Below, in pieces: positions 8,074-31,834 of a stretch of 64,000 nt of DNA. The position numbers and the translations under genes are program-made. The DNA is from Mesotoga infera (GTDB taxonomy: Bacteria > Thermotogota > Thermotogae > Petrotogales > Kosmotogaceae), in NCBI RefSeq assembly GCF_900157305.1, contig NZ_LS974202.1:2170001-2234000 (forward strand). The letters are read 5' to 3'. The notes beneath the pieces are model-generated. The model made no database searches and was not told where the DNA came from. It worked only from the letters and a program-made list of their open reading frames with translations. Positions within the stretch are counted from its first letter, which is position 1, and each line of letters starts with the position of its first letter.

Positions 8074-8536
8074 CGAATCGCTTTCAAAACTCGGAAGAAA
8101 GCTTAGAATACTGGGACTGGACACGGCAGTTTGCAGCTGGCAAACTTTCGACTCTTTGATAGTGGAGAGAGACATCTTTTTGACTACCAGCAGGCGTTTC
8201 CTTGAAAGGGCCATTAAAAGTCGTTTACGCTGTTACCTTCTAAAATCGAACAACTGGAGGAGTCAGCTGAAGTCCGTCTTTCAGAGGTACTCGATTCGGG
8301 TGGAAGATCTAAAGCCTTTCAGTCGTTGCTCGGTCTGCAACGGTGAACTAGAAGAGGCTTCCCCTGAAGATCTTTGCTCGGTTCCCGAGTACGTACTGCT
8401 GAACAACGAAAATCTGCGAAAGTGCCAAAACTGCGGCAGGGTTTACTGGAAGGGCAGCCACGTAGAACATATGAGGTCGCTCTATCGGATAATTGCTGAG
8501 ACGAGTGGTGGTAAAACTGAACAGAGTCCATTTTGA
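8057..8536 (+). CDS. Mut7-C RNase domain protein (PIN-like plus zinc ribbon)
   Basis: The Mut7-C family (formerly DUF82) is a predicted PIN-like ribonuclease fused to a zinc ribbon. Seen: KFLVDESLSKLGRKLRILG with the conserved acidic residue, FLTTSRRFLERA in the position of the family's DxxLLxxA segment, then CSVCNGEL and CQNCGRVYWKGSH, giving the four zinc cysteines and the typical Y/WxGSH end. 159 aa. It overlaps rsmD upstream and probably the histidine kinase downstream. The substrate is unknown. Confidence 0.85.
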   Translation: MKFLVDESLSKLGRKLRILGLDTAVCSWQTFDSLIVERDIFLTTSRRFLERAIKSRLRCYLLKSNNWRSQLKSVFQRYSIRVEDLKPFSRCSVCNGELEEASPEDLCSVPEYVLLNNENLRKCQNCGRVYWKGSHVEHMRSLYRIIAETSGGKTEQSPF

Positions 8537-11213
8537 AACTTCGTATGAGAAGATAATACAAAGACTAATGAAGAGGATCTCCGAGTATTTCTCGGGTGAT
8601 GTATCTCTTTACATTCTCGAAAAATACAAAGGCGTTTACAAAGAGATCATATTCGGTGAGAAGCTCCAGAGGTCCGGTCGGGAGATAAGACTCGAATCGA
8701 ACGAGTCGCTGGAAGAGTTCACCACCGGTGTTTTCTCAGGGACCGTCACGGTGCATAGCCACTCGGATTCCGCCGAGGAGTCGAGAGACCTACACTTTTT
8801 GAATCATGAGGGCGATCTACTCGGTTTGCTCTCACTTCCACGTGGCTCTTATGTAGCCAGCTCCCTGAAGGAATGGATTTCAGAACTGGAGATGGCGCTT
8901 CACTATTCTCTGACACGTAACTACGAACAGGAAGGTTACAGAAGGCTGAAGCTGGCCTCGCGCCTCACATCAGTACTTGAGAGCGAAACAATGATAGAGC
9001 GGCTGATTTACTCTTCTTTGGAGGTTGCCAGAGAGATGCTAAGGGTGAGATGGATCTTCTTTCTGGAGCAGTCGGAAAGCAAATTCACTCTTAAGGCCGC
9101 GATTGGAGAGGGTAGAAATCCTCTGAAGAGCATCGAGTTCCAGCTTTCCGCCCAACAGCTGAATTATCTTACTTCAGGCAGACTGTTCATTTCGGCGAAG
9201 AAATCAGAGATTTCTTCGGTTTTCTTCGACGACGTATCGGCGGTGGGATCCTTCATCGTGGTACCTCTACTCTCTGAAGGCGATTTCATAGGCTTCTTTT
9301 TGGCCGCCGACCGGGAAGAAGTAGAAGGGGAGTTCAGACCTTACAAACATCTGGACGAGGAAGACGTGAGGTTGCTTGATGATGTGGGTCGGAGAACGGG
9401 CGTCGCGATAAGCAAGATCCGACTAACTTCTAGACTGGAACTGGAAGTCAGAAAACTGAAGCAACTCAGCAAGAGACACGAGGAATCGATAAGCGAGCAA
9501 AAGGATCAACTATTCAAACTGGGCGCGCTTCACAAGATATCTCAAGCAATGAGGAAAAGCCTCGATTATGAGAGAATTGTAAATATTCTCCTGGTCGGAG
9601 CGACACATTCGGCTGGCCTTAGGTTCGATAGAGCCTTGTTTCTGAAGAAAAACTCGCGCATGGCGCTTCTAACAGTGGAGGCAAAGATCGTGAGGGGCGA
9701 AGGCGAGTTCGAAAGGACCGTGTACGGCGATCTTTCGAGGTATCTACAGGATGTCTCGCTGGAGCGTCACTTCATAGCCGAAAAAGATAATCACATTTCC
9801 GTTTCATATCTCGGGAACATGATTCTCGAGAGAGTCGTCAACCGTCGAAAGATTGTCCATGTGACACCCGACATGGGTCGTTTCAGAAGCGAAGAGCTCT
9901 CAATACTAAATAAAATAGTCGGGGCACAGGATTATCTGGTGGCGCCGGTTTCCGGAGAAAAGGATGTTCAGGGTGTCATAGTGGTCGATAAAGTCCTGAC
10001 TGGAAACAAAATAAGCAACGCCGACATGGAGATACTGGGTTTGCTGGCCGACAGCGCCGGGGTGGCTCTCGAATTGACGGGGAATTACGAAAGGTTACTG
10101 GAGATAACCGACAGCCTGGAGAAAGAAAGAAACCTTTCCAACTATTACCGTAAATTCGTGTCAAGTATACTTCAGTCTCTCGAGTCGTCGATTGTGGTCT
10201 GTTCTCCGTCCGGAGAGATAACCGAAGTTAATCGCACCGCCGAGCTTCTGTTCGACGCAAGGCGGGAGGAGTTGATCGGCAAGAAAATCGAAATTCTGGC
10301 CGATAAACTTGAGGGTGTTATGGAGTTGCTTTTCGATGTCTTGAGAATCGGTGAAACTATAACTCTCAGCGATCAGAGATTCGATAATCTCGGTGAAAGA
10401 TACTTCGACGTAAAGATCACTCCTCTCAGGCAGGACAGTGGAGGCCATCTCGCCGGTGTGATTATCTCCATGGATGAAGTTACAAGGCGCAAAAAGCTCG
10501 AACAGGAATTCAAGAGCAGAGAAAAGCTAGCCGCACTCGGCGAGATGTCGGCCAGAGTTGCACATGAAATTAGGAACCCCATAACGATAATAGGCGGATT
10601 TATCAAGAGGATGGCCGCCACAAACGATAGGGAAAAGATGGGAGAATATGCGACAATATTGAGAGAAGAACTCGGAAGACTCGACGGTATAGTGAGGGAA
10701 GTGCTGGAAATCTCCAGAGCAAGAACCAGTATCCAGGAAGAGGGATTCGACCTTCTGGCACTTACGAAAGAAGTGCTGGACGGCTTTCAAGAAAGAGCTC
10801 AGGAAGATAATGTAAAGTTAATTCTGGAATCGAAAGAAGAGAAGCTGGAATATTACGCAGATAAAAATAGAATCAAACAGGTTATAATCAACCTTGTTCA
10901 GAATGCGATTGAAGCATCTGAACATTACGGAGAGGTGCTGGTAAAGATAGATAAAGACCCGAAAAATATAGTCTTTTCGGTATGGAATCGTGGAAAAGTC
11001 ATTCCTCAGGAGATTCTGAAGAGAATATTCGAACCCTTCTTCACAACGAAAACTCTGGGTACCGGGCTGGGCCTTTCTATATGTAGAAAGATAGTTCAGG
11101 AGCATGGAGGCGAAATCGAAGCCGATAGCGGAGAAAAAGGCACTGTGTTCACCTTCAGATTGCCGCTTCAAAAGATAGGGAGGTTTGATCATGAAAAAGA
11201 TACTTATCGTTGA
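8493..11213 (+). CDS. Cytoplasmic GAF/PAS sensor histidine kinase
   Basis: A 906-residue kinase with no transmembrane segment that I can see, so it should sense an intracellular signal. Layout: a ~150-residue N-terminal region, a GAF-like domain (~155-305), coiled coil (~310-345), a second GAF-like domain (~350-545), PAS (~560-665), HisKA with AHEIRNP (phospho-His ~691), and HATPase with NLVQNAIEAS and TLGTGLGLSICRKI. The start is uncertain: TTG 8493, GTG 8505 and GTG 8508 are all in frame without a decisive ribosome site. It overlaps the receiver gene by 23 nt, so the two form a pair. Confidence 0.9.
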   Translation: MLRRVVVKLNRVHFETSYEKIIQRLMKRISEYFSGDVSLYILEKYKGVYKEIIFGEKLQRSGREIRLESNESLEEFTTGVFSGTVTVHSHSDSAEESRDLHFLNHEGDLLGLLSLPRGSYVASSLKEWISELEMALHYSLTRNYEQEGYRRLKLASRLTSVLESETMIERLIYSSLEVAREMLRVRWIFFLEQSESKFTLKAAIGEGRNPLKSIEFQLSAQQLNYLTSGRLFISAKKSEISSVFFDDVSAVGSFIVVPLLSEGDFIGFFLAADREEVEGEFRPYKHLDEEDVRLLDDVGRRTGVAISKIRLTSRLELEVRKLKQLSKRHEESISEQKDQLFKLGALHKISQAMRKSLDYERIVNILLVGATHSAGLRFDRALFLKKNSRMALLTVEAKIVRGEGEFERTVYGDLSRYLQDVSLERHFIAEKDNHISVSYLGNMILERVVNRRKIVHVTPDMGRFRSEELSILNKIVGAQDYLVAPVSGEKDVQGVIVVDKVLTGNKISNADMEILGLLADSAGVALELTGNYERLLEITDSLEKERNLSNYYRKFVSSILQSLESSIVVCSPSGEITEVNRTAELLFDARREELIGKKIEILADKLEGVMELLFDVLRIGETITLSDQRFDNLGERYFDVKITPLRQDSGGHLAGVIISMDEVTRRKKLEQEFKSREKLAALGEMSARVAHEIRNPITIIGGFIKRMAATNDREKMGEYATILREELGRLDGIVREVLEISRARTSIQEEGFDLLALTKEVLDGFQERAQEDNVKLILESKEEKLEYYADKNRIKQVIINLVQNAIEASEHYGEVLVKIDKDPKNIVFSVWNRGKVIPQEILKRIFEPFFTTKTLGTGLGLSICRKIVQEHGGEIEADSGEKGTVFTFRLPLQKIGRFDHEKDTYR

Positions 11214-11541
11214 AGATGAGAAAAACATGAGATTTCTCTTAAAGGAAGAACTCGAAGAAGAAGGTTACGAAGTGATTGTCGCAAGCAACGCCCAGGAGGC
11301 GGAGAACTTCCTCGACAGTGGAGTTCACTTTGACCTCGTTACGATAGACATAGAGATGGAAGGAATGAATGGTCTCGAACTGGCCGGCCTTATGAGAAAG
11401 CGGTTGCCCGACTTGAAAATAGTTCTTCTCACTGCTTACACACATTACAAACACGATCTCTCTTCATGGGCAGCGGATTCTTACATAGTAAAATCGCCTG
11501 ATTTTTCCGAATTGAAAACGGTGATAAGAGAATTGATATAG
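11191..11541 (+). CDS. Stand-alone response regulator receiver
   Basis: A receiver domain only (116 aa) with no DNA-binding or enzymatic output. Seen: the acidic pair in LIVEDEKN, the phospho-acceptor Asp53 in TIDIEMEGMNG, the switch Thr in LLTAYTH, and the Lys in YIVKSPD. ATG 11191 is preceded by GGGAGG at 7 nt. The gene lies inside the end of the histidine kinase gene and 33 nt before the giant SLBB gene. It may be a CheY-like relay that controls a protein rather than transcription, possibly linked to polysaccharide export (inference from position). Confidence 0.92.
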   Translation: MKKILIVEDEKNMRFLLKEELEEEGYEVIVASNAQEAENFLDSGVHFDLVTIDIEMEGMNGLELAGLMRKRLPDLKIVLLTAYTHYKHDLSSWAADSYIVKSPDFSELKTVIRELI

Positions 11542-11574: not shown

Positions 11575-14500
11575 ATGCACTTAAAAAAGACAATTATGAT
11601 TGTACTTCTGGCACTAGTGTCCGTTCTGGTTATGGCCTACAAAATCAGACCGGGTGACGTTCTGTTCGTTTCGGTCTATGGTTCCGCAGAGCTTTCGGGA
11701 GAAATCGTTGTGGGGCCGGACGGCACGGCGTCGATACCTCCACTGGGCAGCGTGGCAGTACTTGGCAAGACTCTTGAAGAAGCCGAGTCGCTTTTATCCG
11801 GAAAGTATCTGAGCGGAGGAATTCTGGCTACGAGACCGCAAGTGACAGTTTCTGTAAAGTCTTACGCACCTTTCATGTTTTACGTCCTCGGAGAGGTTAA
11901 CAAACCCGGCGCCATAGAATGGACGAAGGACAATCTAACAGTATCGCAGATAATAGCACTGGCCGGAGGGTTAAAGGACGGTGCAGACCTTTCCTCCTCC
12001 TTCCTGGTAGAGAGCAACGGAAATAGAAAACATATTGACCTATCTTCTTTTCAGGTCGGTGGAGAGGCATCATCGATTACACTGGCCGAAGGCACGACGC
12101 TCTTCATACCTGCCGGTGCCAAAGCCTGGATAAGGAGCATCGGAGAGTTCAGATCTCCCACCCTGATAAGGTATAACCCTGGATTGACACTCACTCAGGT
12201 GATTGCCCAGTCGGGAGGTTTGACGGAAAACGCCGACAAGAAAGAGATTTTGATAATGGGAGAAGGAGTTCAGGGGAGTAAAAAGGTGGTCGATCTCAAC
12301 TCCGTGCTCTCCGGTGCCATCATTGACCCATTGATCCCCGCTGGCAGCATAGTGGTCGCCAACGACTCCTCCATTAAATCGGTGAAGTTGCTGGGCGAGG
12401 TTGGTTCGCCATCGTCGATAAGTTTCAGGGACGGACTGACACTGATTCAAGCGATAGGGCAGGCAGGCGGTGTCAAATCCGGCGCCGCAAGCCAGCTGTT
12501 CATAATAAGAAGCGAACTCTCCGAACCTTTGAGAATCGAGTTGATCTCTCTGTTGAGAGGCGAAATCAAGGATGTGCCGCTTAAGCCTGGAGATACCATT
12601 TTCATTCCCCGTGAAAGCGAGAAGTTCGTTTATATCTCCTCGCCAACCTTTGGAGGAAAGGTACAGTTCGGCGTCGATGAGTCGATTACTCTGGCCAACG
12701 CTCTGGTGAAAGTGGACCTGTACAACCCTGCCAGCGACGAAAGTTCGATACTTGTAGAGCCTTCCGGAGAGCGTATGGAAGTTCGTCTCAACGAAGATAG
12801 AGTTCTTCAATCGGGTTCTATGATAATCGTAAGCGGCGGAACTAAAAGCATTTATATCGCCGGTGAGGTAAACTTTCCCGGTATGATGCAGTTCGGAAAC
12901 TTCGATGAAATCACTCTGGCAAAAGTGATATCGAGGGCCGGTGGTTACACCGAAAAGGCCGGCAGCGTGGAGGTAATCTCTCCCAGCGGGAAGTCGGTAT
13001 ATTCGATTGAACAGGCTTTGAGGAGCGATGTGAAGCTCTCTGTGCAATCGATAGTCCTGGTAGAGAGGATCGAAGAGAGATATGTATATGTCGTGGCTCC
13101 TGGGAGCGGTGGAAGGATAGATTTCAAGGAGAGTGAAAGCTTCACTCTGAAGAACCTCCTGGCCAGACTCAACCTTCTCAATCTGAACTCCTCAAAGGAA
13201 ATCGAAGTTATTGAACCGTCTGGAGAAGTCAGCACGGTGGCCGCCTTAAAGTTAAAAGATAACGATCTGCCGCTTCAGACAGGAGCGATCGTCATTGTGC
13301 CAGCATTGGGCTCGTGGGTTTATGTTTTCGGAGAGGTGTCCAGACCGGGGAAGATCGAAGTTGACGGAGAAGACCTCACACTCACCAGGGTGCTTAGTTC
13401 AAGCGGTGGATACACGAGTGTGGCCGATATATCGAGTGTTGAGGTTCTATCGGCTGGAAAGAGTGTGACCGTCAATCTGCAGGAGATCCTCAAAGGTAGT
13501 ATCCCCGATGTCAAAATAAAATACGACGATCTTATATACATACCCAGACTGGATAACAGGTTTGTTTACGTTGTGTCGCGCAACAAAGGAGGAAAAGTAG
13601 ATTTCGGCAGCGGTGAGAACATAACCTTGAGAAACGCACTGGCCAAGCTCAACCTTGTGGAAGTGTCTTCGGAGAAAACCGTTCGTGCCATTGAGCCTGA
13701 CGGAAAGATCACGGAATTGAGTATAAAATCTCTTGAGAACTCGGATGTGGTGATCGAAACAGGTACCATAATCTTCTACCCGGAACCATACAGCACGGCT
13801 TCTGTACTGGGCCAGGTAAGAAACCCTGGAACGGTAACGCTTCAACCTGACGTTCCATTCACGCTCTCCAACATCCTCGCTGCAGCCGGTGGCCTCACAG
13901 AACGGGCAGATCACAAGAGAATCACCGTCATGGTCACCGACAGCTCATCGGTGACTATATATGACATGGATAGTATTTCAAGTGGAAAGGCTATATACAT
14001 AAAAGATGGCTCTACTGTCTTCGTTCCGGAACTTGAGAGCTTCTACGTGTACGTAGTTGGAGGCGTTAAGGCTCCCGGCGTCAAGACTCTTGATCGCGAT
14101 GGAGGTCTCCCAACAGTCACGAAGGCAATCGCATTGGCTGGCGGATTGATCGATCCGACTGCGAGCAGCATCGAGATCGTTGAGAACCAGAGCAGACAGA
14201 AGCTTGACCTCCAGCGGATAATGAGGGGCGATTCTCCCGATGTTAAGATCGCTTCCGGTTCGGTTATATATGTGCCAGAAATCCCCGGAAAATACATTTA
14301 TATAGTATCCGACAGCGGCGGCGGAAGGGTCGATTTCAATTCCAGTGAGTCTCTGACACTCAGAAACGCCCTGGCCAAGGAGAACTTGCTCGATCTCGCC
14401 TCCGATGGTAGGGTGACGATCATTTCTCCCGACGGAAGCAAGAGGGAGAGGATCCTCTCCGATCTGAAAGATAGCGACATTTCGCTCCAGTCGGGTTCGA

Positions 14501-16308
14501 TAATACTCTATCCAGTTACCCAGAGGCAGATATATATTCTCGGAGCCGTTAGAAGTCCAGGGACGGTTCTCTTCAAACCCGCCGAGAAGCTTACCCTATC
14601 GACTCTCATAGCTAAGGTCGGCGGAACTACTCCCGAGGCTCTAATGTCGAAAGTCCAGATTACCGACCAGTTCAGCAGGACCAGCACCGTGGATCTTGAA
14701 ATGATTCTTCAGGGCAAGGCCCTGGATGTGAAGCTCGAGGATAGAACTTTCGTGTACGTTCCGGTTTATGAACCCATAACGGTCAGTGTTCTCGGTGAGG
14801 TACGCAACCCCGGTCAGGTTACCTTTTCAAAGACCGAGATCCCCGGTCTGCTCCTTGCGATTTCTAAGGCCGGAGGGTTGACCGGTGAGGCCTCTTCGGA
14901 GATCAAGATTGTCGGTCAGGAAAACCAGTCTTACTGGTATCAACTCATGGAAGGTCAGGACATAACCCTGAAAAACGGTCAGACTGTATTTGTACCCGGT
15001 AGAGAAAGATACGTCTACATAACCGGTGAAGTCGCCTCGACGGGTAGATACGATTTCACCGCCGAAGAGAGAATGACGGTCATGAGAACTCTCATAAAGG
15101 CTGGAGGAGCGAGAGAGACAGCCTCCGACGAGTTAAGGGTTATTACCCCGTCGGGACAGGTTATACCCGTGAAACTTTCAGAGCTCCTTTCGGGAAAGAG
15201 TGATCCGACTCTCGAAACGGCGAGCACGATCGTGGTTCCAAAGAAGGTCGCCAGAATAACCGTTTTGGGAGCCGTCAGAAATCCCGGAACGTACATCTTC
15301 AATCGCGACGAGAGTTCGTCCCTCGCCGACGTTGTTGCAAAGGCCGGTGGTCTTACCGACCAGAAGAACGTTGACAGAATTCTAGTTCAGATTTCGAACG
15401 AAATCAAAGAGTTCACAGTTGCCTCCATAGAGAAGAGGAGCGATAACCTTCCTGACAACACATTTGTTTACGTGACCTCGCTCGAAGCTGCGTATGTTAC
15501 TGTGCTGGGAGACGTTCCAAGGCCTGGTAGGTATTCCCTTGAAGGGACCCAACCGGTGTCGGTAGCCGAGATAATAGCTACTGCCGGTGGCCTTGGAGAC
15601 ACCGTCAACACCTTGAGCATCGTGTCGGCCGACGGTAAGATCAAGCTTCTGAACGCACTCAAGATCGAGGATCTCACCAGAAATTTCTTGCAGAAGAGGG
15701 ATACAATAATCGTCTTGAAGAACTACGACTCTTATGTGTCGATAATAGGCGATGTGAAATCCCCGGGTATCTTCTCTATCGGCGATTACGGAGAACTGTC
15801 GCTGGCAGAACTGATCACGATGGCTGGTGGCTTCAACAGTCTTGAGTTCAGCAGAAAAGTGCAGATACAGAACGCTGCGAAGACCGAAGAACTGACCGTC
15901 GGACCGGACAACTTCCTTCTCCTTTCCACTAAAGAACTGGAACCGGGATCTGTGGTCTTCGTTCCATATATACAGACACAGAGGGTTTATGTCTTCGGAG
16001 AGGTTCTCAGACCGGGAGTGGTGAAATTTCTCGAGGGAATGACGGCTATAGAAGCGGTTATAGAAGCCGGCGGCCCGACAAGCTACGCTGTTCTCGGCAA
16101 TGCGCTTCTCTTTCAGGATCCACAGAAAGAGCCCCTTGTACTCAACCTGGACCAGCAGAAGGGAAGCCCGGTGAAGGGAAACGTAAAGCTAGTTCCCGGA
16201 AATATAATTTACGTTCCGCAATCATCGATCGTCAACATAAAGGATATAATGTCAATCGTCGCCTCGTCACTTAGTATAGTGAACTCGGCTGTCGGGATCT
16301 TCAAGTGA
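11575..16308 (+). CDS. Giant SLBB-repeat polysaccharide export protein (Wza-like)
   Basis: A 1577-residue exported protein. Seen: a signal peptide (residues ~1-22), a Poly_export domain (YKIRPGDVLFVSVYG to RPQVTVSVKSY, ~22-100), then about 18 consecutive SLBB modules of ~80 residues. Fourteen show the signature V.GEV..PG ... AGG. Four (4th, 6th, 8th, 11th) are a variant type with GG[KR][VI]DF and NALAK.NL instead. The last ~25 residues (from ~1555) form an amphipathic or hydrophobic helix, as in Wza, where such helices form the outer-membrane pore. Ordinary Wza-type proteins have two or three SLBB modules in ~380 residues. Genes for a PHP phosphatase and a Wzc-like kinase follow. The role is inferred: a conduit or scaffold for polysaccharide across a wide periplasm. 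Confidence 0.88.
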   Translation: MHLKKTIMIVLLALVSVLVMAYKIRPGDVLFVSVYGSAELSGEIVVGPDGTASIPPLGSVAVLGKTLEEAESLLSGKYLSGGILATRPQVTVSVKSYAPFMFYVLGEVNKPGAIEWTKDNLTVSQIIALAGGLKDGADLSSSFLVESNGNRKHIDLSSFQVGGEASSITLAEGTTLFIPAGAKAWIRSIGEFRSPTLIRYNPGLTLTQVIAQSGGLTENADKKEILIMGEGVQGSKKVVDLNSVLSGAIIDPLIPAGSIVVANDSSIKSVKLLGEVGSPSSISFRDGLTLIQAIGQAGGVKSGAASQLFIIRSELSEPLRIELISLLRGEIKDVPLKPGDTIFIPRESEKFVYISSPTFGGKVQFGVDESITLANALVKVDLYNPASDESSILVEPSGERMEVRLNEDRVLQSGSMIIVSGGTKSIYIAGEVNFPGMMQFGNFDEITLAKVISRAGGYTEKAGSVEVISPSGKSVYSIEQALRSDVKLSVQSIVLVERIEERYVYVVAPGSGGRIDFKESESFTLKNLLARLNLLNLNSSKEIEVIEPSGEVSTVAALKLKDNDLPLQTGAIVIVPALGSWVYVFGEVSRPGKIEVDGEDLTLTRVLSSSGGYTSVADISSVEVLSAGKSVTVNLQEILKGSIPDVKIKYDDLIYIPRLDNRFVYVVSRNKGGKVDFGSGENITLRNALAKLNLVEVSSEKTVRAIEPDGKITELSIKSLENSDVVIETGTIIFYPEPYSTASVLGQVRNPGTVTLQPDVPFTLSNILAAAGGLTERADHKRITVMVTDSSSVTIYDMDSISSGKAIYIKDGSTVFVPELESFYVYVVGGVKAPGVKTLDRDGGLPTVTKAIALAGGLIDPTASSIEIVENQSRQKLDLQRIMRGDSPDVKIASGSVIYVPEIPGKYIYIVSDSGGGRVDFNSSESLTLRNALAKENLLDLASDGRVTIISPDGSKRERILSDLKDSDISLQSGSIILYPVTQRQIYILGAVRSPGTVLFKPAEKLTLSTLIAKVGGTTPEALMSKVQITDQFSRTSTVDLEMILQGKALDVKLEDRTFVYVPVYEPITVSVLGEVRNPGQVTFSKTEIPGLLLAISKAGGLTGEASSEIKIVGQENQSYWYQLMEGQDITLKNGQTVFVPGRERYVYITGEVASTGRYDFTAEERMTVMRTLIKAGGARETASDELRVITPSGQVIPVKLSELLSGKSDPTLETASTIVVPKKVARITVLGAVRNPGTYIFNRDESSSLADVVAKAGGLTDQKNVDRILVQISNEIKEFTVASIEKRSDNLPDNTFVYVTSLEAAYVTVLGDVPRPGRYSLEGTQPVSVAEIIATAGGLGDTVNTLSIVSADGKIKLLNALKIEDLTRNFLQKRDTIIVLKNYDSYVSIIGDVKSPGIFSIGDYGELSLAELITMAGGFNSLEFSRKVQIQNAAKTEELTVGPDNFLLLSTKELEPGSVVFVPYIQTQRVYVFGEVLRPGVVKFLEGMTAIEAVIEAGGPTSYAVLGNALLFQDPQKEPLVLNLDQQKGSPVKGNVKLVPGNIIYVPQSSIVNIKDIMSIVASSLSIVNSAVGIFK

Positions 16309-16325: not shown

Positions 16326-16985
16326 GTGAACATAGATCTACACACCCATCTATTGCCGGGAGTCGATGATGGCAGTTCAGATGTGGAAGAATCACTAAAA
16401 ATTCTCGAAAGAATGAAGAGCGGGGGCGTAGAGAGAGTCTATCTGACTCCGCATCTTTATTCACCGCGTACTCCAACAGATATCTTTGCGATCAAAGAAA
16501 GCTGGAGGAAACACTCGGCTTCTCTCAACTCCTCGGGGGTTGAGGTGTTCCTGGGTTCGGAAATTTTTTTGAGACCTGAGGTGCTGACCGGTGAAATCAT
16601 TTCAATGGGAGAGACGAATGTGTTGCTTGTGGAACTCCCCACAGACGCAAGGCCGCATTACTTAGTCGAAGCCATAGAAACCCTTCAGAAGAGGGGATTC
16701 AAGATTGTTCTGGCGCATGTAGAGAGGTACGGCTTTCTTTTCAAAAAGAGTCTTCTCCCTTTCTCCAGGAGTAAACTTGAAGATGAAGTATTTCGCCTCA
16801 AAGATATGGGTGTGCTTTTCCAGGTCAACTGGGATAGCCTAAAGGATTGGCGTACGGTTTTACTCCTGGAGAAGAGAATGGTCGAAACTATTGGTAGCGA
16901 TAAACACCACAACAGCGACGGAAGAGGAGTTATAGATTTCTCTTCGGAATTGGCGAGTCAATTCATAAATGATTATTATCTGTGA
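16326..16985 (+). CDS. PHP-type tyrosine-protein phosphatase, CpsB/YwqE-like
   Basis: Metal-dependent phosphatase that removes phosphate from the tyrosine tail of capsule kinases. Seen: the metal-binding motifs DLHTHLLPGVDDG, TPHLYSP, LGSEIF, HVERYGF and GSDKHH in family order; 219 aa. The start is GTG 16326 behind GAGGTTGGAG. It lies between the SLBB export gene and the kinase gene, the usual capsule arrangement, so the downstream kinase is its probable substrate. Confidence 0.88.
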   Translation: MNIDLHTHLLPGVDDGSSDVEESLKILERMKSGGVERVYLTPHLYSPRTPTDIFAIKESWRKHSASLNSSGVEVFLGSEIFLRPEVLTGEIISMGETNVLLVELPTDARPHYLVEAIETLQKRGFKIVLAHVERYGFLFKKSLLPFSRSKLEDEVFRLKDMGVLFQVNWDSLKDWRTVLLLEKRMVETIGSDKHHNSDGRGVIDFSSELASQFINDYYL

Positions 16986-16999
16986 TCGGAGGTGCACCT

Positions 17000-19213
17000 G
17001 TGAGCGAGCTAGAGGGCAGTGATTACAGGGAGCTAACACTGGAAGATATTTTTAGAATGTTCAAAAAAAGACTGTCTCTTTTTATCTCTATCACGCTGGC
17101 CGTGGTTGTAGTGACGGGAATATACCTCGTGTTTGCCACCCCCATCTACGAAGCCAGCGTTACGATCAAGGTCGATCCTACTTCACAATCTTCGGTGAGC
17201 GATCTATTCACAAATTCGTTGACAGGAAGCTCCATATCTAGAGATATATCAACGGAAGTCGAATTGATCAAAAGCCGCACGAACATAGAGGAGATAATCG
17301 CCGAACTCGATCTTGTAAACAGAGTATACTCGAGCGAAGCTCGCGAGAGATTGATATCGGAGGGCTACACCGAGAAAGACCTGGTTATGTCCCTTACGAG
17401 ATCGATTTCAAATATGATCACCGTATCGCCCGTTAAGGACACGAGGATCGTCAAAGTTTCTGTTCAAAACAAGGATCCAGTTCTCGCCAGAGATATGGCC
17501 AACACTCTTGCGATGGTCTATAACAAGAAACTGGCCGAGCTGTCGAAAAGAGATTTGACCAGAAAAAGGGAGTTCATAGAGGCTCAGATTCCTTTGTTGG
17601 AGAAGGACTTAAAGGAATCTACGGATATGATGAAAAACTTCAAAGAAGAGACGGGTATCTACGTGCTGGACAAGCATTCCGACCTTCTCTTCCAGATGCT
17701 TTCCAGTTACGATAGACAGTACAACGAGTTGAAGATTTCGGCCGAAGAGAAGAAGGCCGAAATCCAGACCTATCAGGGAATGCTCGACGACTTCAACGGA
17801 ACGGACAGCAGAGATGTGAAATCGATGTGGATCCAGACATCGGAAAGTTTCTCGGTGAATCCCGTCCTGACAAGTCTAAGGCAGAGTCTATCCAAACTGC
17901 AGGTAGAACTGGCCGCACTCCAGGAGCAGTATCCATTGACCGATCAGAGAGTCAAATCCAAGATCACTGAGATATCCAAAACTGAAAGTCTGATAGCCGA
18001 TGAGGTGAAGAGAGAGTTCATAACCTCTGGTCAGGGAATGACACTCAATCCGGCCTATCAGCAGATTTTAACGGGCGTTATAACTGCCGAGGCCGATTTG
18101 CAGATACTGGAGGCCTCCATCAACGCCGTTGCCGATATGCGGGAGCAGTACCAGATTGAATTGAGAAGCCTTCCACTCAAGGAGCAACAGCTTCTCGACC
18201 TGCAGAGGCAGATCACAGTCAAAGAGAGCCTCTACACGCTTCTTCTCGAAAGGCTGGAAGAGGCCAAGATCAGCGAGGCCGCAGTCGTTGGCAACGCGGC
18301 GATAGTCGATCCGGCAACTATACCGCAGACTGCCGTTAAGCCTAACAAAAGGCTTTCCCTGGCGATTGGTGCAGTACTCGGCATCTTCCTGGGTATGTTG
18401 ATGGTCTTTTTGGCCGAGTATCTGGATAAAACGCTCAAGACCGAGGAGGAGATAGAGAGGTTCAGCAGACAGCCAATCATCGGCAGGATACCTACGATAG
18501 AGGGTATCAGGGAAGAGATGTACGTAGAGAAGAGTCCCACTGCGCCCTCGGCCGAGTCCATGAAACTAGCCGCCAGTAACCTCTCCTTTACCATGGGAGA
18601 TGGGAAGACCGTCGCGGTAACCTCCGTTCTTCCAACCGAAGGCAAGAGCTTCGTAATAGCCAATCTGGCCTATTCAATGGCCAGTAGCGGGCAGCGCGTT
18701 ATACTGGTGGATTTCGATATGCGCAGACCCAGAGTCGAGAAGATCTTGAAATCAACGAAGAAGCAATACGGAGTCACCGATGTAGTAATGGGTAAAGTCG
18801 AACTGGAGAGCGTCATTGAGAGATACACCGATAATATGGATTTCATCGGCGTGGGTACCGTTCCTCCCAATCCGACGATCGTGCTCTCTTCTAAAAACAT
18901 AGATGTATTGCTTGAGAAACTGAAAGAAAAATATGACAGAATACTGATAGACATGCCTCCGGCGGTTGTCACATCCGACGTTTCTCTGGTCGGAAACAAG
19001 CTCGACGGAATAGTTCTGGTCGTAAAACCCGGCAGAGCGATAAGGGACGGCTTGAGAATCGTCATTGACAACTTAAAAACCGTCGGGGTAAGAATTCTCG
19101 GCGTTATAGTGAATGGTGTCGACGAGAAGAACTCCTCCTATTATTACCATTACTACTATTACTACAACGAAGAGGGAAAGAAGAAAAAGCGAAGAACCAG
19201 AAAGAATAAATAG
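17000..19213 (+). CDS. Polysaccharide co-polymerase with BY-kinase domain (Wzc-like)
   Basis: Inner-membrane protein that controls chain length and export of polysaccharide. Seen: a first membrane helix in the Wzz-like domain (residues ~20-45), a long periplasmic coiled-coil region, a second helix (~450-475), then a BY-kinase with Walker A SVLPTEGKS (~545), Walker A' VILVDFDMRRP, and a C-terminal tyrosine cluster of eight Tyr (YYYHYYYYY) followed by a basic tail. The start is GTG 17000 because GGAGGTG lies 5 nt upstream; the in-frame GTG at 16982 precedes that site and overlaps the phosphatase stop. 737 aa. Confidence 0.92.
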   Translation: MSELEGSDYRELTLEDIFRMFKKRLSLFISITLAVVVVTGIYLVFATPIYEASVTIKVDPTSQSSVSDLFTNSLTGSSISRDISTEVELIKSRTNIEEIIAELDLVNRVYSSEARERLISEGYTEKDLVMSLTRSISNMITVSPVKDTRIVKVSVQNKDPVLARDMANTLAMVYNKKLAELSKRDLTRKREFIEAQIPLLEKDLKESTDMMKNFKEETGIYVLDKHSDLLFQMLSSYDRQYNELKISAEEKKAEIQTYQGMLDDFNGTDSRDVKSMWIQTSESFSVNPVLTSLRQSLSKLQVELAALQEQYPLTDQRVKSKITEISKTESLIADEVKREFITSGQGMTLNPAYQQILTGVITAEADLQILEASINAVADMREQYQIELRSLPLKEQQLLDLQRQITVKESLYTLLLERLEEAKISEAAVVGNAAIVDPATIPQTAVKPNKRLSLAIGAVLGIFLGMLMVFLAEYLDKTLKTEEEIERFSRQPIIGRIPTIEGIREEMYVEKSPTAPSAESMKLAASNLSFTMGDGKTVAVTSVLPTEGKSFVIANLAYSMASSGQRVILVDFDMRRPRVEKILKSTKKQYGVTDVVMGKVELESVIERYTDNMDFIGVGTVPPNPTIVLSSKNIDVLLEKLKEKYDRILIDMPPAVVTSDVSLVGNKLDGIVLVVKPGRAIRDGLRIVIDNLKTVGVRILGVIVNGVDEKNSSYYYHYYYYYNEEGKKKKRRTRKNK

Positions 19214-19230: not shown

Positions 19231-19974
19231 GTGAACCTAGCTCTCAAGGGAATTCTTTATAGTTTGGTGGCAGGCCTGGCAACCACTCTGGGAGCCCTGC
19301 CCTTCATGGCGATGAAGAAGGGAATATCCAGGCGAACCTTGGATATACTTCTGGGTTTTGCGGCCGGCGTGATGCTTGCGGCGACTGCCTTTTCGCTGGT
19401 CGTACCTTCGATAGAGCTGGGGGGACCGCTGAGGTTTGTAATAGGGTTCACCCTAGGGGCGATCTTCGTCGATATAATGGATAAGCTCGCTCCGCACGAG
19501 CATTTGATAAAGGGATACGAAGGACCTCTCGAACACTCGAAAGTCAGTAAAATTTGGCTCTTCGTGATCGCCATAACGCTGCACAACTTTCCGGAAGGAA
19601 TGGCAGTTGGAGTCGGCGCCTTTACGACCGAAGCTCTGGTAATTGCTATGGCTATCGGCGTACAGAATATTCCCGAAGGTGCAGCCGTTATGGCCAGCCT
19701 GGTTGGAGCTGGTTACAAACCCACCCGTGCATTGAGGATTTCCTTTCTCACAGGAATGGTAGAGGTTGTCGGAGGTCTTCTCGGAGCGATACTCATAAGT
19801 GTGGTGAGACCGCTTCTCCCTTACGCCATGGCCTTCGCGGGCGGCGCAATGCTCTTTGTAATAAGCGATGAAGTAGTGCCGGAGACCCACAGTGGCGGCT
19901 TTGAAAGAGCCTCTACCTATTCGCTGATATTTGGCTTCATAGTGATGGCTCTACTTGACAATATTCTTGGGTGA
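19231..19974 (+). CDS. ZIP family divalent metal transporter
   Basis: Membrane importer for zinc or similar divalent cations. Seen: about eight hydrophobic segments over 247 aa, with the two signature helices HNFPEGMAVGVG and GVQNIPEGAAVM that carry the metal-binding His, Asn, Pro and Glu of ZIP proteins. The start is GTG 19231 behind GGGGAGAGGA. It sits between the kinase and the O-antigen-ligase-like gene with short gaps. Its presence in this block is probably co-transcription; a functional link to polysaccharide is not shown. Confidence 0.9.
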   Translation: MNLALKGILYSLVAGLATTLGALPFMAMKKGISRRTLDILLGFAAGVMLAATAFSLVVPSIELGGPLRFVIGFTLGAIFVDIMDKLAPHEHLIKGYEGPLEHSKVSKIWLFVIAITLHNFPEGMAVGVGAFTTEALVIAMAIGVQNIPEGAAVMASLVGAGYKPTRALRISFLTGMVEVVGGLLGAILISVVRPLLPYAMAFAGGAMLFVISDEVVPETHSGGFERASTYSLIFGFIVMALLDNILG

Positions 19975-29362: not shown

Positions 29363-31834
29363 TCAGAAGGCCGGTCCAAAACCGAAGAAGGGTGTTCCGT
29401 AGTAAAGCTTTCCATCAGCGGCGCTTTTGCCGGCCAGATAGGAGTTGTATCCGTAACCGAGGCGTACCATTCCGATTATGGGAATGCTTATGTCCAGACA
29501 TACGCCAAAATCTGCCACGAAGTTACCACCAATCACATCTCCCGTACTGACCTGTCTGAAGAAGACGAGATCTCCGAATCCAACCAGATCAACCGGAACC
29601 GAAGCCGTTTCCGGCGTGAGCGGATATCTCAACTGCGCCGATCCCACAGTTACTCCGTAGGAGCTTTGGCCTATACTCTGAGAGCCCCTGACTCTTATGT
29701 ACATGTCCGGAGATAGGAGGTAACTTCTGTAAACTCCGTAGGGGGAAAGAGGAAAAAGCTGATCGGTCTTTATCCTAAAACCCAGAACGGGATCGCCGAT
29801 AGACATAAAGTGAGTGTATTCACCACTAAGTGATAGGAAAAGCTTATTATCCTTTCCGAACAGTCCTCTAAGGGTAAGACCTGCGCCGAAACCGGTCCCC
29901 ATTGTCGGGCGAAATATGTCGTCTCTGGTGGAAAATTTGTAACTCAGTCCTGTGAACATTCCGTCGAAACTCTGAAGAACATTTTCGGTATCTATGGTTC
30001 CATCGATCTTAGTCTTTGTGGCGACCTCACTCGTCGATCTTATGTACTCATAGCCAGCAGTTACGCCTACACTTTGATCGGGCGAGATGTTGTATATGGG
30101 CGTGAGGGAAAAGAGAAACTCCGTTTCTTGCGATTTCGAAGTCACTATCGTGTCTGTTGAATCGATGGTAGTAGTGAAGCCTGAAAACTTCAACTTGGCC
30201 GAAGTATCCAAGTTCAAGTTAGTTCCGCCGATTTTCGGAATCGAATAGCCAATCGTGGTATCCAGAGACGGACTTCTGGTGGTGGTTTCCGTTCCGTTCT
30301 TGGTAATAACCACCTCCTTATTGTTTGGAAGAGGGAGCGTGACGCTGAGGGTTGTCGATATCTTCTGACCGTATCCCCAGACGTTTAGGAGACCCAGGTC
30401 GAGATAAACGTTCAGACCGTTCTGCCACCCTCCTCCTCCGCCTATCCGGTTGTTCTTGTTACTGTCTTCGAGGGTGATCTCCACGTCTATGGCATCTTTC
30501 CCGACAGGTACCGGTACTATATCCACTTTTGCGAAGTAGCCAGTATTATTGAGGAAGGCATAGGTATTCCTCAGATCATTTAGCGAGAGAACTTCATTCT
30601 TCTTTATTACTATCTTGTCGTTTATCAGATAGTCTTTAGTTTTTTGGGGACCCACGAAGGAAACTTTCACATCCCTAACGGTAGGTTCTGTGATCTTGAA
30701 ACTGAAAAAGCCTATCTTGGGATCTATGACGGGTTCGAGCCTTATGAAGGGGTACTCCTTCTGAGTGTAGAGATCCTGTACCGCCTGCATAGCCTTTGCC
30801 GCGGTTTCGTTGTCCACTTCCTGACCCTCGATCAGTCCAGATGCCATGAAGATCTCGCCCTTGGTTATCTTGACGTTTCCCTCGACGAAAACACTCTTCA
30901 GCGTGAAAGGGGAACTGACATATTCAATGGGAACAAAAGAGATTCTCATAGACAGGGCACTGCTTTCTTTTACATTTTCCGGAAGGGTGACCTGTCTCAC
31001 ATTCTTCAGTGTACTGTTGAAAGAGAGGATCATGGCTTGATAAGTCCGCTCGTCGATACCCCACTGGCCATTGGGATTAGCGTAGTATGTTGAATAGATG
31101 GCCTTTATGGCTCTGTTTATATCCTCAACTTTGGGTATATACTTTTTCTTGGAGTTGATCCACCTGATGAGCGGGGATGTATCATAGTATTGCTTCAAAT
31201 AGCTGAGTTGGGTCTTATCGAGTAGATATTTCACCGTTTCTGACGAGAAAGGCGCATCAATCGTAACTTCCCAAAGATACGCCACTTTTACAGTGAAAGT
31301 GACCTTAATCTTGTCGGTTATCTTTCCCGAGACTATATCGGCCTTGTCTTTGTCCGTTGTCCATTCGATTGTGGCGAAGGGCGGTATGTAACCTTTGCTG
31401 AGAAGCACCCCTTCCATTGCTTCGAGCGTCAGGGGGATTTCAAACATTAGTCTCGAAGGGTTAAGCGGTTTTCCGTTTTTTATGGTAGAGGTAGCTTCCA
31501 GCGTCTCCTTTTCCACTATCTTGGGGCCATCGAAAACCACCGAAACCTCCACGATCGGATACTCTTTCACCTGTATAGTCAAGAGCCTTGTGCTTTTGTC
31601 GTACTCATAAGTGATCGAAGAAAAGTAACTACTAGCCTCAAGTCTTGCAATAGCCTCTTTCAGATCTGATTCCGAAATCTCTATGTTTCTCTCGACCTTC
31701 AAAATCTCCAGGATCTCACTATCGGAAACGACCCTGTTGTCGAGGACCGCTATTCTTGAAGGAACTATGTTCCCAAAAGCAAGACAGAACAGTGAAACAA
31801 ACAAAAAAATAAGGACTCGCTTTTTAACGGACAT
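29363..31834 (-). CDS. bamA: Outer-membrane assembly protein BamA/Omp85
   Basis: Inserts beta-barrel proteins in the outer membrane, the toga in Thermotogota. Seen: a signal peptide (~1-21), several POTRA-like domains over roughly residues 25-470 (the clearest are LKSVFVEGNVKITKGE and VRDVKVSFVG), then a C-terminal barrel of alternating beta strands ending in Phe (FGFGPAF). 823 aa. ATG 31834 has GGGAGG 8 nt upstream. It overlaps the HATPase gene by 11 nt and is the last gene of the long - strand run. Confidence 0.9.
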   Translation of the reverse strand: MSVKKRVLIFLFVSLFCLAFGNIVPSRIAVLDNRVVSDSEILEILKVERNIEISESDLKEAIARLEASSYFSSITYEYDKSTRLLTIQVKEYPIVEVSVVFDGPKIVEKETLEATSTIKNGKPLNPSRLMFEIPLTLEAMEGVLLSKGYIPPFATIEWTTDKDKADIVSGKITDKIKVTFTVKVAYLWEVTIDAPFSSETVKYLLDKTQLSYLKQYYDTSPLIRWINSKKKYIPKVEDINRAIKAIYSTYYANPNGQWGIDERTYQAMILSFNSTLKNVRQVTLPENVKESSALSMRISFVPIEYVSSPFTLKSVFVEGNVKITKGEIFMASGLIEGQEVDNETAAKAMQAVQDLYTQKEYPFIRLEPVIDPKIGFFSFKITEPTVRDVKVSFVGPQKTKDYLINDKIVIKKNEVLSLNDLRNTYAFLNNTGYFAKVDIVPVPVGKDAIDVEITLEDSNKNNRIGGGGGWQNGLNVYLDLGLLNVWGYGQKISTTLSVTLPLPNNKEVVITKNGTETTTRSPSLDTTIGYSIPKIGGTNLNLDTSAKLKFSGFTTTIDSTDTIVTSKSQETEFLFSLTPIYNISPDQSVGVTAGYEYIRSTSEVATKTKIDGTIDTENVLQSFDGMFTGLSYKFSTRDDIFRPTMGTGFGAGLTLRGLFGKDNKLFLSLSGEYTHFMSIGDPVLGFRIKTDQLFPLSPYGVYRSYLLSPDMYIRVRGSQSIGQSSYGVTVGSAQLRYPLTPETASVPVDLVGFGDLVFFRQVSTGDVIGGNFVADFGVCLDISIPIIGMVRLGYGYNSYLAGKSAADGKLYYGTPFFGFGPAF

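What the first reader, a model, noticed from the sequence alone, without database searches (positions are those of the whole stretch)
11575..16308. Giant SLBB protein that could form a very long export tube
The protein has a Poly_export domain, about 18 SLBB modules and an amphipathic C-terminal helix like the pore helix of Wza. Wza stacks three rings from about 380 residues; this one could stack many more. Thermotogota have a toga that separates far from the cell body at the poles, so a long conduit or tether across that space is plausible.
Basis: partly seen in the sequence, partly recalled or inferred. Interest (0 to 1): 0.8.

Follow-up and report, generated by a model that had tools for sequence, protein, structure and literature searches.

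The report
Length-matched giant Wza-like sugar exporter
The gene encodes an oversized relative of the capsule-export pore Wza, with 18 repeat modules instead of two; across the phylum the number of modules tracks the length of the rod protein that holds the outer sheath away from the cell, which suggests the exporter is built to bridge that unusually wide gap.

Summary
The ORF (11575-16308, 1577 aa) has a Sec signal, a Poly_export domain and exactly 18 SLBB modules that tile residues 99-1550. A predicted 22-residue C-terminal helix follows. It sits in an operon with CpsB phosphatase, a Wzc-type co-polymerase/kinase and a Wzy-like polymerase or ligase. The genome looks like Mesotoga (Thermotogota).

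Long multi-SLBB exporters are phylum-wide: 83 of 103 genomes, 748-1732 aa, 8-20 modules. Pseudomonadota mostly have 180-480 aa.

The main new result is that SLBB number tracks the length of the OmpA (Omp-alpha) coiled-coil spacer that sets the toga-to-wall gap. Genus-level r is 0.91 (n=26). Phylogenetic contrasts give r=0.70, p=1e-7. Co-polymerase and BamA lengths scarcely scale. The fitted 32-37 Å of spacer per module is near the ~33 Å of a Wza ring. Ends of the stack are conserved while internal modules duplicate, and the C-terminal 26 residues are identical across Mesotoga although up to 21 of 26 codons differ.

I favour a periplasm-bridging export tower matched to the spacer-held gap, not the wide polar space. 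Ring stacking, pore formation and export are inferred; a tether or bead-string is not excluded.

The parts
11575..16308 (+). giant OPX (Wza-family) protein, 1577 aa
11575..11634 (+). Sec-type signal peptide, residues 1-20; no cysteine in the whole protein, so not a lipoprotein as Wza is
   Evidence: sequence reading; (0 Cys)
11635..11859 (+). Poly_export (PES, D1) domain, residues 21-95
   Evidence: PDB match to Wza over residues 20-219, E 3e-18; fold match to Wza of the Wza-Wzc complex E 9.5e-18
11869..16221 (+). 18 SLBB modules in tandem, residues 99-1549
   Evidence: beta-grasp secondary structure of the modules in the models
12619..12849 (+). odd-type SLBB module 4 (no GEVxxPG / AGG motifs)
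   Evidence: odd modules form one clade, support 0.988
13084..13317 (+). odd-type SLBB module 6
13558..13797 (+). odd-type SLBB module 8
14287..14529 (+). odd-type SLBB module 11
16222..16305 (+). C-terminal 28-residue tail with predicted helix (residues 1555-1576); last 26 residues identical in seven Mesotoga-type genomes
16326..16985 (+). CpsB/CapC (PHP-type) tyrosine phosphatase
   Evidence: PF19567 E 1.5e-33
16982..19213 (+). Wzc-type polysaccharide co-polymerase with BY-kinase domain
   Evidence: Wzz, GNVR and AAA_31 domains; TIGR01007
19983..22778 (+). O-antigen ligase/polymerase-like membrane protein (Wzy_C)
   Evidence: PF04932 E 2.4e-11
19231..19974 (+). ZIP metal transporter inside the operon; conserved in Kosmotogaceae, role unknown
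8493..11541 (+). histidine kinase and response regulator upstream, conserved next to the gene in Kosmotogaceae

Best explanation
It is the outer-envelope subunit of a Wzx/Wzy-type polysaccharide export machine, an OPX protein related to Wza. Its SLBB stack has been lengthened by internal duplication so that the translocon can bridge the unusually wide toga gap. The N-terminal PES ring would dock on the Wzc-type co-polymerase encoded two genes downstream. About 18 SLBB rings would form a walled tunnel, and the conserved C-terminal helix would cross or anchor in the outer membrane. The number of rings is matched by selection to the length of the OmpA coiled-coil rod that sets the toga-to-wall distance. 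Shown: domain content, operon, phylum-wide distribution, covariation with the spacer, conserved ends with variable middle, selection on the C-terminus. Inferred: oligomeric rings, open channel, membrane crossing, the exported polymer.
For: Domains and fold. Operon with CpsB, Wzc and Wzy-like genes: conserved in Kosmotogaceae. OPX and co-polymerase are present or absent together in genomes at least 90% complete (both absent 6, one absent 1 and 1, both present 74; Fisher p 1.4e-7). Module number against OmpA spacer length over 46 genomes: r 0.92; genus means n=26 r 0.91, Spearman 0.94; without Kosmotogaceae r 0.895; contrasts on an RpoB tree r 0.70, p 1e-7; genome-size contrasts r 0.095. Robust to dropping the eight most influential contrasts (r 0.59), and 0 of 2000 tip permutations reach it. 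Co-polymerase length does not follow module number (contrast r 0.13); BamA hardly scales (720-845 aa, log slope 0.06, against 0.73 for the SLBB stack). Spacer per module is 32 Angstrom by contrasts (bootstrap 21-52) and 37 raw, against about 33 per Wza ring. First and last modules are orthologous across genera while middle modules duplicate. Last 26 residues invariant at protein level with up to 21 of 26 codons changed.
Against: No ring or oligomer was modelled. Monomer models have pTM 0.33-0.39, so geometry between modules is unknown. Pfam Wza_C is not matched, the helix is 22 residues (Wza's is about 35) and its pLDDT is low. The confidence interval of the slope also fits an extended bead-string of about 40 Angstrom per module. 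A published survey found no link between OPX length and periplasm thickness across other bacteria (PMC9603273). Kosmotoga has more modules than its spacer predicts (20 for 64 nm). BamA length also shows a weak contrast correlation with the SLBB stack (r 0.39, p 0.013).
Confidence: 0.6

Rival explanations
1. [quoted passage not shown]
For: Length follows the OmpA spacer. Both termini are conserved and the middle is variable, as for a spacer.
Against: It keeps the PES domain that docks Wza on Wzc and lies in an export operon. It is lost together with the co-polymerase, while the toga spacer genes stay: genomes of one family (G008, G012, G015) have SLH spacer proteins but neither OPX nor PCP. OmpA already does the tethering.
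Confidence: 0.15
2. It spans the gap as an extended bead-string whose SLBB modules bind the polymer and guide it, rather than as a closed stack of rings.
For: Spacer length per module is 39 Angstrom on average in the raw data, close to the long dimension of a single beta-grasp domain (my estimate); SLBB domains as a superfamily bind soluble ligands (PMC1796856).
Against: Wza, the solved long relative, forms closed stacked octameric rings (2J58; Wza-Wzc complex, PMC12881504). The contrast-based slope of 32 Angstrom per module fits ring stacking equally well.
Confidence: 0.15
3. Repeat number drifts neutrally and the correlation with the spacer is a by-product of shared ancestry or of a general tendency to longer envelope proteins in some lineages.
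For: BamA shows a weak contrast correlation with the SLBB stack (r 0.39, p 0.013), and spacer against co-polymerase gives r 0.38. Only about 26 genera were sampled.
Against: Contrasts with the spacer remain r 0.70, p 1e-7, with the sign agreeing in 29 of 33. BamA varies by only 17% in length while the stack varies 2.6-fold. Genome size is unrelated. Module number is constant at 18 across Mesotoga genomes with only 55% identity in the SLBB part, which speaks against drift.
Confidence: 0.1

Closest known systems
Wza of E. coli (Class 1 OPX; PDB 2J58, Wza-Wzc complex 9R64)
   Same: PES domain followed by SLBB modules, terminal helix, gene next to a Wzc-type co-polymerase; best structure match of the N-terminal half (E 9.5e-18)
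   Different: 18 SLBB modules instead of 2; no lipoprotein cysteine; shorter helix not matched by Pfam Wza_C; within the phylum the stack varies 2.6-fold in length
OPX Class 3 proteins such as M. xanthus WzaB (9N9A) and long OPX proteins with up to 14 SLBB (PMC9603273)
   Same: Poly_export plus SLBB architecture; that survey already lists Class 1 proteins with 1-14 SLBB hits, and by PF10531 alone this one has 12-14
   Different: the survey does not mention Thermotogota in its main text, reports no link of length to periplasm thickness, and its median lengths are 256-824 aa by class
KpsD (Class 2, SLBB plus GfcC)
   Same: periplasmic beta-grasp domains ahead of a terminal segment
   Different: the weak Caps_syn_GfcC_C match here (E 1.1e-8) lies at residues 133-186, inside an SLBB module, so no separate GfcC domain is present
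OmpA / Omp-alpha toga spacer of Thermotoga maritima (PMC3387000)
   Same: its coiled-coil length (about 50 nm gap in T. maritima) is the quantity that module number follows
   Different: unrelated fold: SLH domain, coiled coil, C-terminal membrane segment

Membership tests
OPX (outer membrane polysaccharide export) family | Poly_export (PF02563) domain | tested here: met
   residues 21-95, 66.8 bits against cut-off 28
OPX (outer membrane polysaccharide export) family | one or more SLBB domains after Poly_export | tested here: met
   18 modules; PF10531 and PF22461 far over cut-off
OPX (outer membrane polysaccharide export) family | signal for export across the inner membrane | tested here: inconclusive
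   typical Sec signal by eye (MHLKKTIMIVLLALVSVLVMA), no signal-peptide program available
OPX Class 1 (Wza type) | C-terminal outer-membrane-spanning Wza_C helix (PF18412) | tested here: inconclusive
   Pfam gives no Wza_C hit even at E<=10; AlphaFold2 gives a 22-residue helix at low pLDDT; moderate amphipathicity; 26 residues invariant at protein level with 14-21 of 26 codons changed in five of six relatives
OPX Class 1 (Wza type) | lipoprotein signal (Cys) | tested here: not met
   no Cys in the protein; about 22% of Class 1 proteins lack it too (PMC9603273), so it is usual rather than strictly defining
OPX Class 1 (Wza type) | octameric ring with axial channel | not testable with these tools
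   only single chains can be modelled
Wzx/Wzy-dependent export system | co-polymerase (PCP) partner | tested here: met
   Wzz/GNVR/BY-kinase gene at 16982-19213; co-occurrence across genomes p 1.4e-7
OPX Class 2 (KpsD type) | separate GfcC domain | tested here: not met
   only one short stretch, lying inside an SLBB module

The most novel reading that the evidence does not exclude
The exporter and the toga spacer are a co-evolving pair of molecular rulers: OmpA coiled-coil length sets the gap and selection adjusts the number of SLBB rings so that a closed protein tunnel of up to about 60-70 nm joins the two membranes. That would be one of the longest protein-walled export channels built from a single type of polypeptide.
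Probability: 0.45. Interest if true: 0.85.

Novelty: new variant of a known kind. Interest (0 to 1): 0.72.

Why it matters
How trans-envelope machines are fitted to the distance between membranes has been studied in E. coli through the Lpp spacer (PMC5736177, PMC8824477). Here evolution seems to have run the same experiment across about 26 genera: spacer and exporter lengths change together over a 2.6-fold range. If confirmed, module counts could predict toga width from sequence, and Thermotogota would give natural length variants of the capsule translocon. It also qualifies a published negative result (no link of OPX length to periplasm thickness across bacteria, PMC9603273) by showing a strong link within one phylum.

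Tried and rejected
Counting modules with Pfam alone gives 12-14 and misses degenerate modules; a self-built profile was needed. TamB was tried as a second bridge that should scale, but it is absent from all 103 genomes. Secretins were tried as a second test: raw Spearman with spacer length is 0.81, but Kosmotoga and G033 break the pattern and contrasts are not significant (r 0.28, p 0.086), so this is not counted as support. Co-polymerase and BamA served as negative controls; both show weak positive trends, reported in the text. The scan of public genomes for relatives outside the phylum returned only short or partial matches and was used only to reach a Pseudomonadota sample. The weak NuoF, ComEA, cupin and JmjC profile matches fall inside SLBB modules and were rejected as separate domains. 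Reading the covariation as an exact ring count was rejected because the slope interval (21-52 Å per module) is too wide.

Full report
What is there. The frame at 11575-16308 on the + strand encodes 1577 residues without interruption. Residues 1-20 look like a Sec signal, and the protein has no cysteine, so it is not a lipoprotein. Residues 21-95 match Poly_export and the rest matches SLBB families many times over. A profile built from the protein's own modules finds 18 consecutive modules from residue 99 to about 1550 with no gaps, the weakest at E 1.7e-19. Four of them (4, 6, 8, 11) lack the usual GEVxxPG and AGG motifs and form a clade of their own with the matching modules of relatives (support 0.988). 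The last 28 residues follow the last module, and AlphaFold2 makes residues 1555-1576 helical.

Structure. Two overlapping parts were modelled (residues 22-826 and 742-1577; mean pLDDT 74 and 73). The individual modules have the expected beta-grasp pattern, but pTM is 0.33 and 0.39, so how modules sit against each other is not known. The first part finds Wza of the Wza-Wzc complex as best solved structure (E 9.5e-18, 267 aligned columns), and the second part also finds Wza first. By sequence the first 220 residues match Wza at E 3e-18.

Neighbourhood. The gene lies between a sensor kinase/response regulator pair and genes for a CpsB-type phosphatase, a Wzc-type co-polymerase with kinase domain, a ZIP transporter and a Wzy_C protein. 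The same order is found in other Kosmotogaceae. Among genomes at least 90% complete, Poly_export and Wzz genes are almost always present or absent together (Fisher p 1.4e-7). This ties the protein to the export pathway and not to toga structure as such.

Distribution. 83 of 103 Thermotogota genomes have a Poly_export gene, nearly always one copy. In 41 genomes read in full the protein has 748-1732 residues; with gaps between modules filled, 8 to 20 modules were counted in the 46 genomes compared with the spacer. All seven Mesotoga-type genomes have 18. The genome taken for T. maritima, identified only by its size of 1,860,725 bases, has 992 residues and 11 modules. In a sample of 150 Pseudomonadota genomes most Poly_export frames are 180-480 residues and the longest listed is 1037 (that list is cut off).

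Covariation with the toga spacer. T. maritima OmpA1 has an SLH domain, a 316-residue coiled coil that holds the toga about 50 nm away, and a C-terminal hydrophobic anchor (PMC3387000). I extracted this protein type (tyrS-linked, and aspS-linked or other paralogues) from 46 genomes and measured the stretch between the SLH domain and the C-terminal membrane segment. Module number against mean spacer length gives r 0.916, and SLBB residues against spacer length r 0.935. Genus means (n=26) give r 0.907 and Spearman 0.943. Without Kosmotogaceae r is 0.895. Independent contrasts on an RpoB tree (45 tips) give r 0.703, p 1e-7; each paralogue alone gives 0.70-0.72. The result survives removal of the eight most influential contrasts (r 0.59, p 1e-4), and none of 2000 tip permutations reaches it. 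Inside one genus (g9, 11-15 modules) the trend has the same sign, r 0.77 with six genomes, p 0.07.

Controls. Genome size is unrelated after contrasts (r 0.095). Co-polymerase lengths run from 598 to 765 and do not follow module number (contrast r 0.13), though they follow the spacer weakly (r 0.38, p 0.012). BamA runs from 720 to 845 with a log slope of 0.06 against spacer, compared with 0.73 for the SLBB stack. Secretin lengths follow the spacer in raw data (Spearman 0.81) but not by contrasts (p 0.086), because Kosmotoga departs from the trend.

Physical size. One spacer residue in a coiled coil is 1.485 Å (my knowledge). Mesotoga's spacer of 466-491 residues is then about 70 nm, T. maritima's 45 nm. 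Reduced-major-axis fits give 37 Å of spacer per module in raw data and 32 Å by contrasts (bootstrap 21-52). Wza is 140 Å tall and the Wza-Wzc complex spans about 250 Å of periplasm (PMC12881504). Taking about 40 Å for the helix barrel (my estimate), the three Wza rings average about 33 Å. The agreement is encouraging but cannot separate stacked rings from an extended chain of domains.

How it grew. Terminal modules are orthologous between genera (last-module clade support 0.99; module 2 clade 0.99 within Kosmotogaceae). The middle holds lineage-specific duplicates, including neighbouring pairs within one protein (support 0.92-0.99). Constant ends and a variable middle are what length adjustment predicts. 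The last 26 residues are identical in seven Mesotoga-type genomes; in five of these the SLBB part is only 55-57% identical to this one and 14-21 of the 26 codons differ. The constraint is therefore on the protein. This supports an essential role of the C-terminal helix, membrane insertion being the obvious candidate.

Verdict. The protein is an OPX family member by domain tests. Class 1 membership is unsettled, because Wza_C is not matched by profile and ring formation could not be tested. I put 0.6 on a gap-bridging export conduit of spacer-matched length, with a tether and a bead-string guide as main rivals. Limits: partial RpoB tree with midpoint rooting, several metagenome assemblies, some paralogue assignments made by exclusion, control lengths taken from open frames, and no direct measurement of toga width outside T. 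maritima found in the papers read.

Noticed in passing
L240:1709-15391 (-), i.e. G000:C1 about 322209-335891, outside the window: The same genome encodes a 4560-aa secretin with what look like dozens of about 70-aa N-domain-like repeats ahead of the secretin domain; other Mesotoga-type genomes have 3900-3921 aa frames, against 631-735 in several Petrotogaceae-type genomes. Repeats were judged by eye only.
   Followed up: partly
L095/L154 and L155 (G024, genome size 2974229 as for Mesotoga prima): Two OmpA-type spacer genes, one next to tyrS (562 aa) and one next to aspS (579 aa), are present, whereas PMC3387000 reports only one ompA gene in M. prima.
   Followed up: partly
genomes G034-G050 (Petrotogaceae-like family f2): The aspS-linked spacer gene lies about 10 kb from the OPX gene in many of these genomes, so spacer and exporter are physically linked there.
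   Followed up: no
genomes G008-G017 (family f7): Several members lack both Poly_export and Wzz genes but keep SLH spacer proteins: a natural loss of the export pathway without loss of the toga spacer.
   Followed up: partly
all 103 Thermotogota genomes: No TamB (PF04357) match in any genome, although control diderms have it.
   Followed up: no
window 19231-19974: A ZIP metal transporter gene sits between the co-polymerase and Wzy_C genes and keeps that place in Kosmotoga-type genomes; its link to polysaccharide export is unexplained.
   Followed up: no
window 29363-31834 (-): BamA-like Omp85 protein with POTRA domains, 823 aa, 13 kb from the OPX gene.
   Followed up: partly
G091:C1:17780-17993: The Poly_export match of this Thermotoga genome is split over two frames (89 and 967 aa), suggesting a frameshift or sequencing error.
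   Followed up: no
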